Shown piece after piece: positions 21,030 to 29,849 of a DNA stretch of 64,000 bases. The notes beneath the pieces were generated by a model. That model was not told the origin of the DNA and did no database searches. It was given only the letters and a program-made list of their open reading frames with translations. How positions within the stretch are numbered: the stretch's first letter is position 1; each line of letters begins with the position of its first letter. Source of the stretch: Candidatus Zhuqueibacterota bacterium (GTDB lineage Bacteria > Zhuqueibacterota > Zhuqueibacteria > Zhuqueibacterales > Geothermadaptataceae); the NCBI GenBank assembly GCA_030950365.1, contig JAUZRQ010000103.1:1-64000 (forward strand), written 5' to 3'. The translations under genes were made by a program, and so were the position numbers.

Positions 21030-21060
21030 CCGCCCGCCCCCCAATCGAGGCCAATTGGGA

Positions 21061-21882
21061 TTATTTGAGCATCAGCATTTTGGCCGATTGGCTAAAACCG
21101 CCAGCCCTGATCTGATATACATACACGCCGCTGGCCAGGGCGCGCCCGGCATGGTCCCGGCCATCCCAGACCACAGTGTACGAACCCGCAGCCTGCCGCA
21201 GTGCCACGAGCCTGCGCACGGTGCGTCCCTGCATATCGAGAATCGTCAGCCGCACCTCGGCCGGCACCGGCAGGTCGTAGCGGATGGTGGTCTGTGGATT
21301 AAATGGATTGGGGTAGTTCGGGTGCAAGGCAAATTCCGTAGGCCGACCGGCCCCGGTTTCCTCAACCGCCGTGGCCGGATCGAGAAAAAACAGGCCCTGT
21401 GCGTTGGTGGCCAGGCGGGTGGCCAGGCTATCTGAGGCCTGCACCGACCACCGGATGCCCAGCCGGGTATTTGAAGCAACCAGACCGGAGAAATCCACCA
21501 CAAGACTGGTATCCCGGGTGGTAAAGCTGGTGTCGTTGCTGTCCCACTGCAACGCCAGCGTATAGGTGACCGGATCACCATCCGGATCGACTGCATCGGA
21601 CCAGACGAACTGAACGTTATCGGCCTGCACCACGGTGCTGTCCTGCGGCTGCAAGCGGCGAAAGTCACCGGGGGCACGATTGCCTTCCATCGCCACCGAC
21701 AGGAGATTGCCACTGGCGTCGTAAGCGTAGGAAATGCGGTTGCCGTTATCATAGGTTACTTTGATCAGCCGCCCCTGGGCGTCGTATTCGTAGGTCTCGC
21801 CCGCCAGGGAGAGCTCCACAGACAAAAAGCTGACAACGAAGGCAAGAAATTTACAGGAAATGGATTTTATAATACGTTTCAT
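21061..21882 (-). CDS. Secreted YD-repeat protein with FlgD-like C-terminal sorting module
   Basis: A signal peptide (to about residue 27, ending LSLAG) precedes two RHS/YD units, TYEYDAQGRLIKVTYDNGNRI and SYAYDASGNLLSV. Then comes a fibronectin-like segment (residues 75-165) with VQFVWSDAVDPDGDPVTYTL. The last 85 residues form the sorting module: FALHPNYPNPFNPQTTIRYD, an immunoglobulin-like fold with GSYTVVWDGRDHAGRALASGVYVY, and a KMLMLK tail. By family analogy the tail directs surface attachment by a type IX-like system. It lies 93 nt downstream of the giant RHS protein, with GGAGAGG as ribosome binding site. The function is unknown; a fragment or partner of the RHS protein is possible. 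Confidence 0.88.
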   Translation of the reverse strand: MKRIIKSISCKFLAFVVSFLSVELSLAGETYEYDAQGRLIKVTYDNGNRISYAYDASGNLLSVAMEGNRAPGDFRRLQPQDSTVVQADNVQFVWSDAVDPDGDPVTYTLALQWDSNDTSFTTRDTSLVVDFSGLVASNTRLGIRWSVQASDSLATRLATNAQGLFFLDPATAVEETGAGRPTEFALHPNYPNPFNPQTTIRYDLPVPAEVRLTILDMQGRTVRRLVALRQAAGSYTVVWDGRDHAGRALASGVYVYQIRAGGFSQSAKMLMLK

Positions 21883-21975
21883 GATCCTCTCCGTGTTTGT
21901 CGGTCAAATCGTTTCATTTCGGTGCGACCCTGCAGTTGGGTCATTATAATGCCATCGGCTTTACCAATCATCCTA

Positions 21976-24900
21976 CTAATCACGACTCAACCAGTTGGTC
22001 AGGGTTTCACCGGCTCCGTAAACAAATTTGACCACGGCACCATGCTCGCCCCGTTTTATGGCGCTCTCCAGCCGACGCAGGGATTGATAGCCTTCTAACG
22101 CGGCCACGGGGACACGAATAGCCTGTTTTAGCGAATTGCTGATATTCCCACCCGTGAGTGCATCCCCGATGGCCACGGGCGCCGAGGCCAGTCCGAGTGC
22201 GCCATCCGCCAGACCGGAAGCGACTGTGCGGACGGCCGTTGCCGTACCTCCCTGGCCTTCTTTTTGCGCCTGTTTGTATTCATTCCAGGCGCCCCAGGCG
22301 CCGCCCAACACAGTACCGGCGGCTTTGGTGAAAGCGGCTCTTCTCCCAGCCCTGGCAAGGCCGGAAAAATTGCCGCTCTGCAATCCGGTGCGCACAATGG
22401 CTCTGCCCTGCCGTTTGAAAAAGGTTTCTCCTGCGGCGAAGCCCAGGCCCAAAGCGCTGCCAGTGAAATCCGGATTAATGAAAGGGGATTCCCGATCTAC
22501 TACTGGCGTTGTGGACGGTCGCGTTCTTGTAGCGGGTTGACTGACTGGCGCAGGCTCCACCACCGGGGCTTGTTTCGTGGCGGTTGCCGTCCCCGCAAAA
22601 AAACCGCTATTCCATGGGTTATCCATGTTTATTAACCGTTCTATAAATTCAAAGCTCTTGATGAAATCCCACCCTTCCTGGTCCCGGGCTGCATCCATGT
22701 CCAGAAGACCGTCTAATCCCAGTGGGTCGGCGAACCGCATCGGATTGCCATAGGCAAACTGGTACAGGCTCATGCTGCGCGGATGGAACGACGCTACCGG
22801 GTCTTCGGATATAAATTGCCTTGAGATCGCATCATAGTACCGCGCTCGCATGTAAAACAGGCCGGTTTCTCCTTCCTGCATCACGCCATATTTGCCCTGA
22901 AAGGTGAACAGATGGCCAGACTCGCCTGCCATCCCGGCGATCCGACCATAGGGGGTATAGGCATAGCGGCTGACAATGCGGCCACTGGCGTCGGTCAAAA
23001 ACAGGGTATTGCCGCGTTCATCATAATGATAAAACCGGACCTGGCCATTGGCCGCGTTGATGCTGTATAGCAGCATGCCATCTGTGGAATGGATGTAATA
23101 ACGAAAATCACTGCCTTCGCACCGTTCCACGGAAAGGACGGGTATTGGCAAAGTATAGTTCCAGATATATTCATGGCGTTCCCCCTCACTCACCCTCGAG
23201 GTGAGCTGACCAACGGCATCGTACTCAAAGCGGACCTGTTTGCCGCTTTCGGAATAGCTTTCCAATTGCGAGGCCAGATTCCAGGAATAGCTGCGCCAAT
23301 CATCGCCGGTGCGCCGTCCGAGATGGTCAAAACGGAATTGCTCCACCTGCGAAGCGGCGTCATAGGCCAGGTTTTGCGTATCGGCGTTCAACTTGAGTGG
23401 CAGGGGCACTTCGCGTTCAGCAGCCACGATTTGCCCGCCGTCGTTGCGCGTGAGCTGAATCGTTGACAGGCCCCCTTCCTCGATGCCGACCAGGTAGCCG
23501 TTAGCGTCATAAGTAAAGGTGGTGGTCACGCCGTTGGGCCGCTCGATTTGCGTCAACCGTCCCACAGGATCGAAGGTCAGACGGGTGGTCTGCTGCAACC
23601 AATCGGTGATGGTGATGGGCAAATTGCGTTCATCATAGGTGTATTCCACGGTTTTCCCGTCAGGGAGGGTCATGCGAATCATCCGCCCGGCGGCATCACG
23701 TTCAATGCGGATGCCGTTGCTGCCGATGAGGCGATCGTTGGCGTCATATTCCAGGGCCAGCCCATCGGCCGCAATCAGGCGTCCGGCGGCGTCGTATTGA
23801 AATTGCAGCCGGGTGCCGTCGGAAAACGCTTTCGCGGTTACATTGCCCAGCCCGTCGCGTTCGAAAGTGACTGAACCCATGCCCCCAGGAAAGGTCATTT
23901 TTTCCAGCCAACCGCGGCTATGGTAGGCATGGGTGGCGGTGCGTCCCAGTGGATCGGTACGGGCGGTGATACGTCCACGGGTATCTCGGGTAAAATTCCA
24001 GGCACTGCCGCGGCCATCCACGATGCGGGTCACATTACCGAGGGCATCGCGAGTGTATTGCCCCATGATGCCTCCGGCCAGGGTCATGCGATTCAGATAA
24101 CCGTTGGCATCATATTGAAGGGTGGTAAGCTGACCGTTGGCCCCTTGCACGGAAGTCAATTGGCCCATGGCATCGAATTCGAGCTGCGCGTTTCCCGAGC
24201 CAGGCTCGGCGCGCTGATTTAGCCGCCCCATTTTGTCCGCCGAATACATCCGGGTATTTCCCAGCGGGTCCGTGGTCCGGGTAAGCACGCCCTCGGCATC
24301 ATATCCCTGGCTCCAGGTACCGCCTGCCGGATCGGTCAGGCTAACGAGGTTATTCAATACGTCATATTGCATCGTGAACGTATGTCCGTTTTCATTGGTC
24401 AGTCGATTCAACCGCCCCAGGGCATCGTAAGTACGGGAGCTGACATTGCCCAGCGGATCGGTGATCTGTACCAGACGATCGAGTCCTTCGTAGGCATACG
24501 AGGTGCGATTCCCCAGCGGATCGGTCAATCCGGTAAGATTGCCGTTAGCATCGTAATCAAAAATGATCTGGCTACCGCGTTCATCGGTCAGAGACAGCAG
24601 GCGATCGCTTGCGTCGTACATAAAGATGCGACTGCTGCCGTCGGGGCGATTGATCCGTACCAGTCGATCAAAGGCATCATAGTCGAAGGCTGTCTTCTGG
24701 CCAAATTCATCCGTCATGGAAGCCAGAGTGCCGTTGGCGTTATAGCTGTTGGTAATAGTGCCCCCCAGTGGATTGCTCACGGTCACGACCTGTCCACGGC
24801 CGTTGTAGGTATAATTCCAAGGGTTGCCGGCGCGATCGGTCCACGAAATGAGGTTACCGCTGGCATCATAGGTGAATTGCTCACGGGTGCCATCAGGAAA

Positions 24901-27543
24901 GGTGATGGCGGCTGGATCATAAAACATCAAGCCCGCCACCTCACGCGCGGTATATTCGAGACTGACGATACTACCGTCGGCGCGGTTGATTTGCGTGGCC
25001 AGGCCGCTCGGATCATGATACGTGTAACTGAACGCGTTATTGTTACGATCCGTGAGTGCATTTCGCCGGCCTGTACCGTCATAGCCCTGGGTGATGGTCT
25101 GCCCGGTTTTACTCTGGATGGCAGTGTTCTTCCCTTCGGCATCGTGGAAGTAGGTTTCCGTATTGCCGAAGGCATCGGTTACCACGGTTTCCATCGGCGT
25201 CCGGGTTTTGTTATATTGAAACCGATGCTTGTTGCCGTTTGCATCGGTCTGGGTGACCACCCTTCCTTCGGCATCGTAGGTCTGGGAGTATGGTACGTTA
25301 CCGCGTGGCAGGGTTTTGCTGGTCAGCAATCCCGGGATGGAATGGGCTTCATCATAGGCGTACGTTGTTGTTTTGCCACTGGCATCGGTCACCCCGGTCA
25401 GGTTACTGCCCGTATGCTGGTAGGCAACGGTACGCGTGCCGTCACTGACGCCAGTCAATCGGTTCTCAGCATCGTAAGTGAAGGTCAGGGTTCGGCCCAG
25501 GCCGTCGGAAATGGAGGCAAGCCGGCCGTTACTGTAACTCAAAGTGTGCGCATTGCCGCGGCCGTCTTCAATTTTTACCCATTTGCCGGTGTCATCAAAC
25601 GTCCACAAACGGTTGCTGCGGGGATCGCCAAGGATGAAATTGGCGCCGCTTTCCACCAATTGAAACGGGACATCGCGTTTCCCTCGCAGCTCCCATGCGC
25701 CGTTGGTCTGTTCAAACTCTATTATCCGCCCGCGATAGGTGACGATTTCGATGCGGGTGTCGCTAATCCGGGTGAGCTTTCCGTCGAAACGGTGCAGCCA
25801 GTTGGTGCCGAGAGCACTGCGGATTTTTGCGTCCTGCCCGAGATGGGAGGCGTAATACCGCTCAAAAATCAGAGGCATGGGGCCACCCAGGTACAGATCG
25901 GGCGCTTCCAGGAAAAACAGCTCTCCGGTAAACAGATTGATGGGATCGCGGGTGGTAGCGCTTTGGATAAGATTGGCATGAGTCATTGGGGGGCTCTGCA
26001 CATAATCTAGCACCTCCAGCCGGGTAATCCCACCCACGTAATCGAGCGTTATGTTGCCGGGATGGATCGGCTGGAGCGCGTTGGCCGTGGTCGTTATTTC
26101 GCCCATAAAGGAGCCCGTTAGCGTCCAAGAAAATCTCCCCTTCTCTTTCGAATAAAGCATTGCAGTCACCACCAGGCGCTCCGCCTTATCGCCAAAAAAG
26201 CGTTTGGCGAATGGCATCTCTTGCCGGATTTCCACGCCCATGTCGGTCATTCGCCACTCCGAGAAAATATATCCCGATGCTGCCGGTTCGATGGTTGATT
26301 TGCCGATCCCGGCCGTCGATCCCCCCGGCTGTTGCGGGATGAAATCATCGCTTAAAGATTGCCCTGCGTAGATCAAATTGCCGTTTTCATCGCGCGCAAA
26401 TGCGAACACCCTATCGCGGTCTGAGCCGCCCAGGTAGGAACTCGCCTGGATGCTTTTGGCAAAAGGCGTCAGCACCGCCACAAAGCCGTCCTCGGAACCG
26501 CCGCCAAAATTGGCTTGAAACGCGTTGACGACGGGCATATCCGTTGAGGATGTCCTGCCCCAGATGTGCACATTCCCGTCCACATCCACAGCGATGCCAT
26601 GCAAATTGTCATAATCGGTGCCGCCCAGGTAGGTGGCGGTTTCCAGGGCCCCGGTGGGACTGAAAACCGCCACATAGGTATCACTGACCCCCCCTGCGAA
26701 ATTGGCCTGAAGGGCATCTTTGGTTATGAGGTCGGAGGACAAAGTACCGCCGGCGAGATAGATATTACCTGCAGCATCGACCGCGATCTCATTTCCGTAT
26801 TCGTTCCCGGAGCCTCCATACGTGAAACCAAGCACTTCGGTCAGGACATTGTTGCTTTCACTGAGCTTCACCACGACTGCCTGCGAGGCGCCCAGGACGC
26901 TGCCGGGATTCCCCGACGGGAAATCCCTGGAAAGGGTCTCGCAGGAGATATAAATGTTTCCGTCGCTGTCCAGAGCCAAACCTGGATGGTTTGCCTCGGA
27001 GCTTGAACCTCCGATGCGGGTGGAGGTAAGCACGTTGCCGTCGCTGTCCAGGATGGCTAAAAAGTTGTCCAGGGAACCGCCGGTGTAGAGCGGATTGACC
27101 ACCGGAAAATCATCGGAAAATGTGGTGCCCACTACATAAATGCGGCCATCGGGGCCAACCGCCACATCGGAGGCCTGATCCAAATAACTGCCACCGATGA
27201 AGACCGTCCACAGCACCTGTCCCTGCTCGGTGGAATTGGTCGGCAGCGTGATTTTACTGACAAAGGCATCGCGAGATTGGGGACTGGCGTTGGTGCCCGG
27301 GAAGCTTGGAGAGCTGGTGAAGCCGACCACGATGATGGTACCGTCCGGGGACTTGGCCATATCATACACGAAGTCGCTGCCGCTGCCGCCGAAGTAGGAG
27401 GCGTACACCACCTCAGGCGACATGGTCTGTTCCTGAGCCTGGGAATTGCCCGACGTCCCTACAATAACCATTACCAGGAAGCCCACCCCCGACATGATGA
27501 GGCGTTGGCTGAATAAAAAATCAGGCTTAATTTTTGTAAGCAT
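21976..27543 (-). CDS. Giant SBBP-RHS repeat protein with unique C-terminal region, polymorphic-toxin-like
   Basis: The ATG at 27543 follows AGGAG; a TTG two codons upstream is less likely. The 1855 residues comprise a signal peptide and then SBBP beta-propeller repeats (about 48-410), with units such as YFGGSGSDFVYDMAKSPDGT. A DUF6531-like entry domain follows near 530 (DPINLFTGELFF) and a long YD-repeat barrel at about 620-1515. The RHS core lies at about 1515-1615: GLFYMRARYYD, then YGNPMRFADPLGLDG. The final 240 residues leave the RHS pattern: a Pro-rich linker and Gly/Ala-rich helical stretches. By family knowledge RHS shells enclose a variable C-terminal effector. No nuclease motif or downstream immunity gene is evident. 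Confidence 0.9.
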   Translation of the reverse strand: MLTKIKPDFLFSQRLIMSGVGFLVMVIVGTSGNSQAQEQTMSPEVVYASYFGGSGSDFVYDMAKSPDGTIIVVGFTSSPSFPGTNASPQSRDAFVSKITLPTNSTEQGQVLWTVFIGGSYLDQASDVAVGPDGRIYVVGTTFSDDFPVVNPLYTGGSLDNFLAILDSDGNVLTSTRIGGSSSEANHPGLALDSDGNIYISCETLSRDFPSGNPGSVLGASQAVVVKLSESNNVLTEVLGFTYGGSGNEYGNEIAVDAAGNIYLAGGTLSSDLITKDALQANFAGGVSDTYVAVFSPTGALETATYLGGTDYDNLHGIAVDVDGNVHIWGRTSSTDMPVVNAFQANFGGGSEDGFVAVLTPFAKSIQASSYLGGSDRDRVFAFARDENGNLIYAGQSLSDDFIPQQPGGSTAGIGKSTIEPAASGYIFSEWRMTDMGVEIRQEMPFAKRFFGDKAERLVVTAMLYSKEKGRFSWTLTGSFMGEITTTANALQPIHPGNITLDYVGGITRLEVLDYVQSPPMTHANLIQSATTRDPINLFTGELFFLEAPDLYLGGPMPLIFERYYASHLGQDAKIRSALGTNWLHRFDGKLTRISDTRIEIVTYRGRIIEFEQTNGAWELRGKRDVPFQLVESGANFILGDPRSNRLWTFDDTGKWVKIEDGRGNAHTLSYSNGRLASISDGLGRTLTFTYDAENRLTGVSDGTRTVAYQHTGSNLTGVTDASGKTTTYAYDEAHSIPGLLTSKTLPRGNVPYSQTYDAEGRVVTQTDANGNKHRFQYNKTRTPMETVVTDAFGNTETYFHDAEGKNTAIQSKTGQTITQGYDGTGRRNALTDRNNNAFSYTYHDPSGLATQINRADGSIVSLEYTAREVAGLMFYDPAAITFPDGTREQFTYDASGNLISWTDRAGNPWNYTYNGRGQVVTVSNPLGGTITNSYNANGTLASMTDEFGQKTAFDYDAFDRLVRINRPDGSSRIFMYDASDRLLSLTDERGSQIIFDYDANGNLTGLTDPLGNRTSYAYEGLDRLVQITDPLGNVSSRTYDALGRLNRLTNENGHTFTMQYDVLNNLVSLTDPAGGTWSQGYDAEGVLTRTTDPLGNTRMYSADKMGRLNQRAEPGSGNAQLEFDAMGQLTSVQGANGQLTTLQYDANGYLNRMTLAGGIMGQYTRDALGNVTRIVDGRGSAWNFTRDTRGRITARTDPLGRTATHAYHSRGWLEKMTFPGGMGSVTFERDGLGNVTAKAFSDGTRLQFQYDAAGRLIAADGLALEYDANDRLIGSNGIRIERDAAGRMIRMTLPDGKTVEYTYDERNLPITITDWLQQTTRLTFDPVGRLTQIERPNGVTTTFTYDANGYLVGIEEGGLSTIQLTRNDGGQIVAAEREVPLPLKLNADTQNLAYDAASQVEQFRFDHLGRRTGDDWRSYSWNLASQLESYSESGKQVRFEYDAVGQLTSRVSEGERHEYIWNYTLPIPVLSVERCEGSDFRYYIHSTDGMLLYSINAANGQVRFYHYDERGNTLFLTDASGRIVSRYAYTPYGRIAGMAGESGHLFTFQGKYGVMQEGETGLFYMRARYYDAISRQFISEDPVASFHPRSMSLYQFAYGNPMRFADPLGLDGLLDMDAARDQEGWDFIKSFEFIERLINMDNPWNSGFFAGTATATKQAPVVEPAPVSQPATRTRPSTTPVVDRESPFINPDFTGSALGLGFAAGETFFKRQGRAIVRTGLQSGNFSGLARAGRRAAFTKAAGTVLGGAWGAWNEYKQAQKEGQGGTATAVRTVASGLADGALGLASAPVAIGDALTGGNISNSLKQAIRVPVAALEGYQSLRRLESAIKRGEHGAVVKFVYGAGETLTNWLSRD

Positions 27544-27647
27544 TATCAATTCTCCTGATTAAAGTAAAAAAACACTTCCGAGAAACGATTAATCCATTTA
27601 ATAGGGAAGCCACTTTTGCCGCACCCAATACCTTATAACTCCAAGAA

Positions 27648-28004
27648 TCAGTACCCTCGGAGCAACGCTTCAATGCGTTCGATTAATAGCTTTTGATTAA
27701 TGGGGTTGGGAAAAGCATCCCGGACGTCAAAAGCAAAGGCCGTTGGCAACAACTCACGGTTTCCGATAAAAACTACCGGCACTCTGGGACAATATTCCTT
27801 TAGAAGGCGAAGCTGGTTCTCAAGTATTAGGGGTTTATCGCTTGATAGTAACACAAGTCGGAGCTCGGCCATGTTTTGCACGGTGTTCACAAGGCGGCTT
27901 CCCTGCCCGGCGATCACCACCTCCGCGATTTCCGAAATCGCCTGCATTAGCCGGGCATTCCGAATAATTGAGCTGCCGACGATCAGAATTGCCGTTCCTG
28001 TCAT
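27648..28004 (-). CDS. Pseudo-receiver domain protein
   Basis: The 118-residue protein has the length and strand-helix rhythm of a CheY-like receiver, beginning TAILIVGSSIIRNARLM and ending FPNPINQKLLIERIEALL. The N-terminal acidic pair is replaced by GSS, and the phospho-acceptor segment reads LVLLSSDKP with no Asp at the usual place. The lysine of the KP motif is replaced by FPNP. It is therefore probably a non-phosphorylatable adaptor. AAGGAG precedes the ATG. It lies between a sigma-54 activator and the RHS gene in the same direction. Confidence 0.65.
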   Translation of the reverse strand: MTGTAILIVGSSIIRNARLMQAISEIAEVVIAGQGSRLVNTVQNMAELRLVLLSSDKPLILENQLRLLKEYCPRVPVVFIGNRELLPTAFAFDVRDAFPNPINQKLLIERIEALLRGY

Positions 28005-28289
28005 CGTTTCTCCTTCTTATTATCTGAGGAAAGAATACCCTTCAAGCATCATGCCGGGATGATGGCGCGGCAACCAACCGATTTGATAAGAGTTGTTTTT
28101 AAATGAAATATAACACGGAGAGAAATAACGATGCATCAGCTAAAACCGATGAAATATTGGTAGCCACACCAAAGTATGCTATGGTGAGAATGCCAAAATA
28201 CCACTTTTTGATCCGAAATTAGACAAATTGCCACAAGGGGGCACATGCCTTCTTTCTTCACCTTCTTGGAGCGCGGCACTTTTGCCAGG

Positions 28290-29849
28290 TCATTCTGGTT
28301 TATTAGCTGTTTTAAATGCCCTGGCATCTATCCTATGCTGTTTCATCTTTTCGTAGAAGTTTTTGACGTCCATGCCCGAAGCGCGTGCCGCCTGACTGAT
28401 ATTGCCACCGGAGTCGGCCAGACGCTCGAGGATGAAACTGCGTTCAAACTCTTGAAGCAGACGTTGTTTGGCTTCTCGAAAGGTGGGAACATTTTGTTCT
28501 ACAGGAGGGGGCGATTCAACGGGACCCAGATCGATTGGTAGCGTTTCGGCCTCGACTTCATTGGCCTGGCACAGGATGACAGCCCGTTCCATCATATTTT
28601 CCAGTTCTCGCACATTACCCGGAAAATGATATTTTAGCAATTGAGCACGGGCTTTGGAGCTCAGCCGGAGTCCGGGCTTGCCGTATTTGCTGCCATAGTA
28701 ATCGAGAAAATGCACAGCCAGCAGCAAAATATCACTGGCACGGTCTCGCAATGGCGGCACTTCGATGGCGATCACATTAAGGCGATAATATACATCATCC
28801 CGGAACCTTCCGGCATTCACAAGTTGCTGCAGATTGCGGTTGGTGGCGGCAAGTATTCGCACGTTGCTGTGGCGCAGCCGTGTACTCCCCACGGGTGAAA
28901 ACTCTCCAGTCTGCAAAATACGCAGCAGCTTCAGTTGCAGCGCTGGTGACATCTCACTGACTTCATCAAGAAAAATCGTGCCGCCGTGAGCGCGTTCAAA
29001 CCAGCCGATTTTATTTTCCGTGGCTCCAGTAAACGCGCCTTTGACGTGCCCGAACAGCTCGGACTCCAGCAAATTTTCCTGCAAGGTACTGCAATTGATC
29101 GCCACAAACGGCCGGTTTGCGCGGCGACTGTTCTGATGCAAGGCTCGGGCGATTAGTTCCTTGCCAGTACCGGTTTCCCCCTGAATTAGTACCGTGGCTT
29201 CAGTATCAGCGACCTGAGCGACCAATTGTAAAATCTGCATTATGGCCGGATGGGTGCCAATGATCTCACCAAACGAATAGTGCTCGCGCAGGTCACGCTG
29301 CAGCGCTTCGACATTGTCTCGCAAGCGCTGTTGCTCCAGGGCATGCGCCGCCGCTACGGAGATGAAGTCAGCAAATTTTTGCGCAAATTGAAACATCTCC
29401 GGGCTAAATATACCACGAAAGGAGCGATTATCGAGGTATACAGCACCGATTAGTTCGCCTGCATGCAAAAGGGGTAAACAGATTACGGAAAGGATCTTGA
29501 GACCACGCACACTTTTACTGGCTTCGAACTCCGGAGCTTCCAGGGCATTTTGCAGGAACACAGGCTTTTTATCGAACTGGACTTTGCGAATAATACTTCG
29601 GCTGGTTTCATTTTTGGGACGTTGCAAATCCTGCCGATTGAGGTTGCGAGCAGTATGAAACCGAGAGCCGCCATCGTGATCAAACAAAATAATGAAACCA
29701 CGTTCGGCCTGGGTGAGCGCAATCGCTCCATCCATAGCCCTGGTCAGTATCCGATCAATATCCTCTTCAGCCAACACCTGGCGGCCGATATCAAGCAAAT
29801 TTTCCAGAATGGATGGAGCAAACTGCATGGGATTGGACTGGGGCATCAT
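28290..29849 (-). CDS. GAF-domain sigma-54-dependent activator
   Basis: The 519 residues carry a GAF domain (about 30-175: TQAERGFIILFDHDGG, then GELIGAVYLDNRSFRGIF). An AAA+ activator domain follows (about 195-425) with GETGTGKELIARAL, an intact GAFTGA loop in HVKGAFTGATENKIGW and Walker B GGTIFLDEVSEM. A Fis-like helix-turn-helix lies near 475-510 (GGNISQAARASGMDVKNFYEKM). GAF replaces the usual receiver, so activation is by small-molecule binding or protein contact. It overlaps the preceding kinase gene by ATGA, and the two may form one signalling unit. It should drive sigma-54 promoters; I could not identify a clear -24/-12 site nearby. Confidence 0.93.
   Translation of the reverse strand: MMPQSNPMQFAPSILENLLDIGRQVLAEEDIDRILTRAMDGAIALTQAERGFIILFDHDGGSRFHTARNLNRQDLQRPKNETSRSIIRKVQFDKKPVFLQNALEAPEFEASKSVRGLKILSVICLPLLHAGELIGAVYLDNRSFRGIFSPEMFQFAQKFADFISVAAAHALEQQRLRDNVEALQRDLREHYSFGEIIGTHPAIMQILQLVAQVADTEATVLIQGETGTGKELIARALHQNSRRANRPFVAINCSTLQENLLESELFGHVKGAFTGATENKIGWFERAHGGTIFLDEVSEMSPALQLKLLRILQTGEFSPVGSTRLRHSNVRILAATNRNLQQLVNAGRFRDDVYYRLNVIAIEVPPLRDRASDILLLAVHFLDYYGSKYGKPGLRLSSKARAQLLKYHFPGNVRELENMMERAVILCQANEVEAETLPIDLGPVESPPPVEQNVPTFREAKQRLLQEFERSFILERLADSGGNISQAARASGMDVKNFYEKMKQHRIDARAFKTANKPE

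What the first reader, a model, noticed from the sequence alone, without database searches (positions are those of the whole stretch)
21976..22694. Unmatched 240-residue C-terminus of the RHS protein
After the core ending in FADPLGLDG the sequence switches to a Pro-rich linker and Gly/Ala-rich helices with no known nuclease or protease motif. In RHS proteins this is where the variable effector lies. Helical, Gly-rich composition is compatible with a membrane-acting domain. No immunity gene is evident downstream.
Basis: partly seen in the sequence, partly recalled or inferred. Interest (0 to 1): 0.5.

Follow-up and report, generated by a model that had tools for sequence, protein, structure and literature searches.

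The report
Variable RHS tail and secreted partner
The unmatched end of this large bacterial shell protein is a real, lineage-private cargo of unproven function, as such tails usually are; the more unusual part is the gene next to it, one of a set of small secreted partners found beside similar shell genes in distant bacteria, which may help carry the shell to the cell surface.

Summary
Confirmed: residues 1613-1857 of the minus-strand RHS protein (21976-27549) form a tail with a Pro-rich linker and Gly/Ala-rich, probably helical segments. It has no match in Pfam, NCBIfam, PHROGs, PADLOC or PDB sequences, nor in the other 81 of 82 phylum genomes searched. The core continues across phyla (44% and 41% identical in a gammaproteobacterial and an Anaerolineae MAG) while the tail changes at DPxG, as in polymorphic RHS proteins. 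Being unmatched is normal: at most 3 of 27 tails scanned had a Pfam match. A membrane-acting tail is possible (cationic, amphipathic beyond shuffles) but has no strong transmembrane helix, no glycine zipper beyond composition and no usable fold model. No immunity-like gene follows. The downstream gene (21061-21882) is a secreted protein with a single YD pair and a type IX sorting domain. Similar signal-peptide-plus-one-YD genes lie beside RHS genes in Pseudomonadota, Bacteroidota and Chloroflexota; some carry type IX or IPTL-CTERM-like sorting ends. One published RHS bacteriocin needs an apparently similar gene (ORF4). Best reading: a Sec-exported RHS shell with an autocleavable variable cargo, exported or displayed with its YD partner. 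The tail's activity is inferred, not shown.

The parts
21976..27549 (-). RHS gene, 1857 aa (TTG start as listed): signal peptide, SBBP propeller, DUF6531, RHS repeats, Rhs_assc_core, variable tail
27433..27549 (-). likely Sec signal peptide (hydrophobic stretch IMSGVGFLVMVIVG; read by eye, no predictor run)
26350..27417 (-). SBBP-type beta-propeller region
   Evidence: Pfam SBBP E 3.6e-17, four stretches; boundaries approximate
25714..25947 (-). DUF6531
   Evidence: E 7.4e-14, residues 535-612
22714..22959 (-). RHS repeat-associated core TIGR03696, ending DPLGL
22726..22803 (-). putative autocleavage dyad D1583 and D1608 (25 residues apart)
   Evidence: both invariant in the 8-sequence alignment A1; spacing
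21979..22713 (-). variable C-terminal tail (residues 1613-1857)
22480..22578 (-). Pro/Thr-rich linker of the tail
   Evidence: sequence
21982..22473 (-). Gly/Ala-rich, cationic, probably helical part of the tail
21061..21882 (-). P0003: secreted single-YD partner gene, 93 nt after the RHS stop
21685..21795 (-). single YD pair of P0003
   Evidence: RHS_repeat E 5.4e-9; profile match 67 bits (profile includes this sequence)
21076..21315 (-). FlgD-like / type IX sorting C-terminal domain of P0003
   Evidence: TIGR04183 40.3 bits, cut-off 23; FlgD_ig 52.1 bits, cut-off 27

Best explanation
The gene makes a Sec-exported RHS shell closed at its N-terminal side by an SBBP propeller. The tail is a variable cargo held in the shell and probably cut off by the shell's own Asp dyad after DPLGL. 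The shell is taken to the outside or held at the surface with the help of the downstream partner P0003, whose single YD pair could dock onto the YD shell and whose type IX sorting domain gives it access to the outer membrane export route. Once released, the tail most likely acts on membranes of a neighbouring cell (Gly/Ala-rich, cationic, amphipathic), but this last step is the least certain (about 0.3). Shown here: architecture, core/tail switch, catalytic Asp residues present, partner gene and its recurrence, SprA in the genome. Inferred: cleavage, encapsulation, docking, export route, target.
For: Core and signal peptide; shell-like model whose best PDB matches are RhsA, other T6SS Rhs proteins and teneurins (E 3e-46, but TM-scores only about 0.2). 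Core shared with L049 (44%) and L050 (41%), tails unrelated. D1583/D1608 invariant in 8 of 8. The tail is found in 1 of 82 phylum genomes, its own. Partner: P0003-like genes adjoin RHS in 2 of the 4 loci, the two closest cores, and in 3 of 10 fetched plasmid RHS loci found by core alone. Of the 9 minis read in the 8 loci fetched after mini searches, 8 lie beside an RHS gene, one of these divergently; Novosphingobium is the exception. SprA in the genome at 716 bits. ORF4 of the Bcn-A locus, with a signal peptide and similarity to WapA/RhsA, is required for that RHS bacteriocin (PMC7259588).
Against: No experiment. The tail has no strong transmembrane segment and no glycine zipper beyond chance. 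At 25.6 kDa it is larger than the 15-16 kDa tails said to fill shells of about 32,000 cubic angstroms (PMC10684867), so it may not fit inside. L049 has DISG in place of DPxG, so cleavage may not be general in this group. No immunity gene, which a toxin usually has. Most minis have no known sorting end; several are only signal peptide plus YD. Shell/tail AlphaFold model pTM 0.34, tail pLDDT about 20-35. 7 of 10 plasmid RHS loci and 2 of 4 loci have no mini.
Confidence: 0.45

Rival explanations
1. The tail is an ordinary polymorphic toxin of an undescribed enzyme or nuclease family; immunity lies elsewhere or is not needed because the protein acts outside the cell.
For: Tails in this sample differ at DPxG and mostly lack Pfam matches; other loci with partner genes have an immunity-like gene after RHS (Methylomonas; Asticcacaulis).
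Against: No compact domain can be seen after the Gly/Ala segment; conserved catalytic residues cannot be tested without relatives; no immunity gene.
Confidence: 0.25
2. The tail is a Gly/Ala-rich pre-toxin (translocation) segment whose warhead was lost, or a decayed end, so the protein is a toxin relic or plain surface protein.
For: In other RHS tails such as L004, L006, L012 and L028 a Gly/Ala-rich stretch is followed by a further, less Gly-rich part; here nothing follows. No immunity gene.
Against: The frame is intact with normal coding bias; no warhead remnant seen by eye between the stop and P0003.
Confidence: 0.2
3. The whole RHS protein is an adhesin or surface scaffold; the tail is structural and P0003 is its anchor, without any toxin.
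For: SBBP propeller, type IX sorting partner and no immunity gene; a same-genus genome has an SBBP plus type IX protein in the matching slot next to the esterase.
Against: RHS core with both Asp residues and abrupt tail divergence fit a polymorphic cargo better.
Confidence: 0.2
4. P0003 is not a functional partner but a leftover: a displaced piece of RHS or of a surface protein that stayed next to it.
For: RHS loci are known to carry displaced C-terminal pieces (recalled; for PMC2935791 only the title and abstract start were seen). P0003's C-terminal domain is of a kind found in 82 of 82 phylum genomes.
Against: The 14 minis (selected for one YD match) lie on either side of RHS and across phyla, and those read have their own likely signal peptide; RHS proteins beside them have one too where read, so it is not a split gene.
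Confidence: 0.25

Closest known systems
Tse5, an Rhs pore-forming effector (PMC10684867, passages read)
   Same: RHS shell, aspartyl autocleavage after DPxGL, tail that acts on membranes rather than as an enzyme
   Different: T6SS-delivered with a PAAR-like domain, 16-kDa tail and an immunity protein; here Sec signal, SBBP propeller, 25.6-kDa tail, no immunity gene; sequences not compared
Bacterial teneurin-like proteins (PMC13018210: opening part, sections 8 and 9, passages read)
   Same: often Sec-exported, propeller plus YD shell, variable tail; one such tail permeabilises E. coli when sent to the periplasm
   Different: NHL propeller, FN-plug and TIP domain there; SBBP and DUF6531 here; their downstream gene is an immunity gene, here it is a YD/sorting protein
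Bcn-A locus of Xanthomonas perforans (PMC7259588: section 19 and passages read)
   Same: RHS bacteriocin with a neighbouring signal-peptide protein (ORF4) similar to WapA/RhsA
   Different: ORF4 is 290 aa with two transmembrane helices, export by type II secretion and an immunity gene (ORF5); I did not see ORF4's full sequence
Bd0108/Bd0109 of Bdellovibrio (PMC3818213, PMC4267844: passages read)
   Same: small secreted protein encoded beside a secreted YD-repeat protein, shown to bind it
   Different: Bd0108 is disordered and its partner lacks protease and variable tail; no YD pair is reported in Bd0108 in the passages seen

Membership tests
Rhs polymorphic proteins | RHS repeats and Rhs_assc_core | tested here: met
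   RHS_repeat 374.8 bits, TIGR03696 53 bits, cut-off 32.5
Rhs polymorphic proteins | conserved core with divergent tail | tested here: met
Rhs polymorphic proteins | catalytic Asp pair and PxxxxDPxGL | tested here: met
   NPMRFADPLGL; both Asp invariant in 8 of 8; first motif lacks its G and the spacing is 25, not about 22-23
Rhs polymorphic proteins | autoproteolysis | not testable with these tools
   needs the protein
Rhs polymorphic proteins | immunity gene downstream | tested here: not met
   next gene is P0003
Bacterial teneurin-like proteins | NHL propeller, FN-plug and YD shell | tested here: not met
   SBBP found; NHL at 14.7 bits and TEN_YD-shell at 37.5 bits, both below their cut-offs (20 and 50); DUF6531 present
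Glycine-zipper or pore-forming toxins (works like) | glycine zipper or transmembrane helices | tested here: inconclusive
   3 zipper matches, shuffle mean 2.1; no strong hydrophobic helix; amphipathic windows exceed shuffles
Type IX secretion cargo (P0003) | type A sorting domain and a T9SS translocon gene in the genome | tested here: met
   TIGR04183 40.3 bits (cut-off 23; Pfam PF18962 26.7, just under its 27); SprA 716 bits
Immunity protein (P0003) | binds and neutralises the tail | not testable with these tools
   no immunity family matched

The most novel reading that the evidence does not exclude
Sec-exported RHS proteins across several phyla share a dedicated partner, a signal peptide followed by one YD pair. 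It completes or docks onto the RHS shell in trans and lends it whatever outer-membrane sorting or export route the lineage uses (type IX, exosortase, type II), which would answer how these very large shells leave Gram-negative cells without a T6SS.
Probability: 0.27. Interest if true: 0.72.

Novelty: new variant of a known kind. Interest (0 to 1): 0.45.

Why it matters
How non-T6SS RHS proteins cross the outer membrane is open; [quoted passage not shown] A small partner gene that recurs beside RHS genes gives that question a testable handle. The tail itself adds one more unmatched cargo, possibly membrane-acting, to a large class of such tails.

Tried and rejected
Tail homologues: none in the other 81 of 82 phylum genomes, in plasmids or phages, nor in genome contigs or viral contigs (both need exact short peptide matches, so only close relatives would show). 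Tail similarity to L050 (11 of 18 identical, E 0.004 for one comparison) and to others was judged chance: best of 28 tails p 0.007 by shuffling, L050 p 0.01. Glycine zipper: not above composition. Structure of the tail: single-sequence model pLDDT 43, and about 20-35 in the core-plus-tail model; no fold search was made with the tail model. Frameshift artefact: rejected by codon score. P0003 as a split piece of RHS: judged unlikely, since it has its own likely signal peptide. Exclusions: one search scanned 27 tails including the window's; left out were tails cut by a contig end (L033, L017, L045, L024), one with a masked motif (L009), and three whose core end my script misplaced (L049, L030, L005); L049 was scanned apart. 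In the plasmid survey 10 of 13 core hits were fetched (not H12, H15, H18). Of the 5 records only H1 was fetched; of the 22, seven were (H20, H22, H31, H32, H34, H39, H40); of the 34, H61 and H79, which are long RHS genes and not minis. Phylum RHS loci hold only about 1.5 kb of flank, so absence of a mini there is weak evidence.

Full report
THE OBSERVATION. The RHS gene runs on the minus strand from 27549 to 21976, 1857 residues. Pfam and NCBIfam give an SBBP propeller, DUF6531, 21 RHS-repeat stretches and TIGR03696 at residues 1531-1612. The core ends exactly at DPLGL; the tail is residues 1613-1857. It is in the coding frame, has no significant match in Pfam, NCBIfam, PHROGs, PADLOC or PDB sequences, and has pI 9.5, 14.8% Ala and 12.7% Gly.

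IS IT A VARIABLE TAIL? This is the only RHS core in its genome. The tail occurs in 1 of 82 phylum genomes, its own, and not in the one same-genus genome held, which also has no TIGR03696 match at E <= 0.001. In the phylum the best other core match is 36% identical. The closest cores found lie in other phyla: L049, a gammaproteobacterial MAG, 44%, and L050, an Anaerolineae MAG, 41%. Aligned over the shell, all three agree up to DPxG and then diverge; no tail matches the window's at a convincing level. So the core is conserved and the tail is not. Of 27 tails scanned, families at E <= 0.01 were YkuD, HNH and HNH_5, one member each, so at most 3 of 27 tails are recognised. An unmatched tail is the rule here.

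WHAT COULD THE TAIL DO? AlphaFold2 on one sequence suggests helices from residue 80 of the tail on, at mean pLDDT 43; with the shell and eight sequences the shell reaches about 80 but the tail about 20-35. The Gly/Ala part has more amphipathic windows than shuffles (25 against 5.1, p 0.005; the maximum itself is p 0.106), but no strong transmembrane segment and no glycine zipper beyond composition (3 against 2.07, p 0.35; looser counts p 0.09-0.12). Membrane-acting RHS tails exist: Tse5 forms ion-selective pores (PMC10684867, passages) and a teneurin-like tail permeabilises E. coli when sent to the periplasm (PMC13018210, section 8). I give membrane action about 0.3.

RELEASE. Both Asp residues of the RHS protease are present (D1583, D1608) and invariant in the 8-sequence alignment. 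The first motif lacks its Gly and the spacing is 25 against 22 in RhsA and 23 in Tse5. L049 has DISG at the second motif. Cleavage is therefore likely but not certain. At 25.6 kDa the tail is larger than the 15-16 kDa tails reported for shells of about 32,000 cubic angstroms.

THE LOCUS. On one side, SbcC and an esterase are 85% identical in DNA to the same-genus genome G006 up to window 21045, where G006 instead has a protein with SBBP-like similarity and a type IX sorting domain. On the other side the sigma-54 regulator and kinase are shared with G005 (74% and 48% of residues), which has no RHS there. The RHS gene and its neighbour thus fill a variable slot between conserved blocks. G006's contig ends inside that slot, so its far side was not seen.

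THE PARTNER. P0003, 93 nt after the RHS stop, has a likely signal peptide, one YD pair and a FlgD/type IX sorting domain. The sorting domain is ordinary in the phylum (82 of 82 genomes), but the signal-peptide-plus-YD part matched strongly only in its own genome (six other genomes had weak matches, and the four small-ORF ones I read carry three or more YD motifs). Both close-core relatives carry such a gene right after RHS: L049 overlapping the stop, L050 34 nt after it. The other two loci do not. Of 13 plasmid records found with the L049 core, 10 were fetched and 3 have a mini: two near-identical Methylomonas plasmids (upstream) and Aureispira (downstream, type IX domain). Searching with minis gave Asticcacaulis (two minis, one just upstream of an RHS gene and one divergent from another), Caballeronia, Variovorax, Rhizobium, Methylomonas UP202, Hartmannibacter and Methylosinus, each beside an RHS gene, and Novosphingobium without one: 8 of 9 minis. 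In Variovorax the open frame of the RHS gene overlaps the mini, so its start is unsure. Some minis are only signal peptide plus YD; others end in type IX (window, Aureispira) or IPTL-CTERM-like signals (Methylomonas koyamae 20.5 bits at cut-off 20.5; DH-1 14.8, below it) with an annotated xrtM exosortase gene nearby. Asticcacaulis and Methylomonas UP202 have type II secretion genes next door. Signal peptides were judged by a hydrophobicity rule or by eye, not by a predictor.

PUBLISHED HINTS. In the Bcn-A locus ORF4, with a signal peptide and some identity to WapA and RhsA, is required for the RHS bacteriocin (PMC7259588, section 19 and passages). In Bdellovibrio a small secreted protein binds its neighbouring YD-repeat protein (PMC3818213, PMC4267844, passages). 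In nine paper searches I saw no paper that describes the single-YD partner as a recurring gene; most listed papers were seen only as listings, and most subscription papers are not held.

READING. The protein is best taken as a Sec-exported, propeller-capped RHS shell with a variable cargo, paired with a YD partner that may sort or export it; the genome has the type IX translocon gene SprA (716 bits). It is not a teneurin-like protein by domains and lacks the usual immunity gene. Docking, export and toxicity are inferences.

Noticed in passing
L049:6526-7203: The first 50 residues of the L049 RHS tail weakly match Porin_4 (E 0.001, below the cut-off): a possible outer-membrane strand piece in an RHS tail.
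   Followed up: no
window 21045-28314: The RHS/P0003 pair fills a variable slot between blocks conserved in relatives; G006 has an SBBP-like plus type IX protein there instead.
   Followed up: partly
L117:1555-11079: Methylomonas koyamae plasmid: mini, RHS, small gene, then a second RHS core gene and another small gene, like displaced toxin cassettes.
   Followed up: no
L136:4980-5507: Novosphingobium plasmid: a small YD-bearing Calx-beta protein with no annotated RHS neighbour in the fetched 10 kb.
   Followed up: partly
L127, L129, L130 minis: Alphaproteobacterial minis share a short end of the form WGxGxxGCxxW after the YD pair.
   Followed up: no
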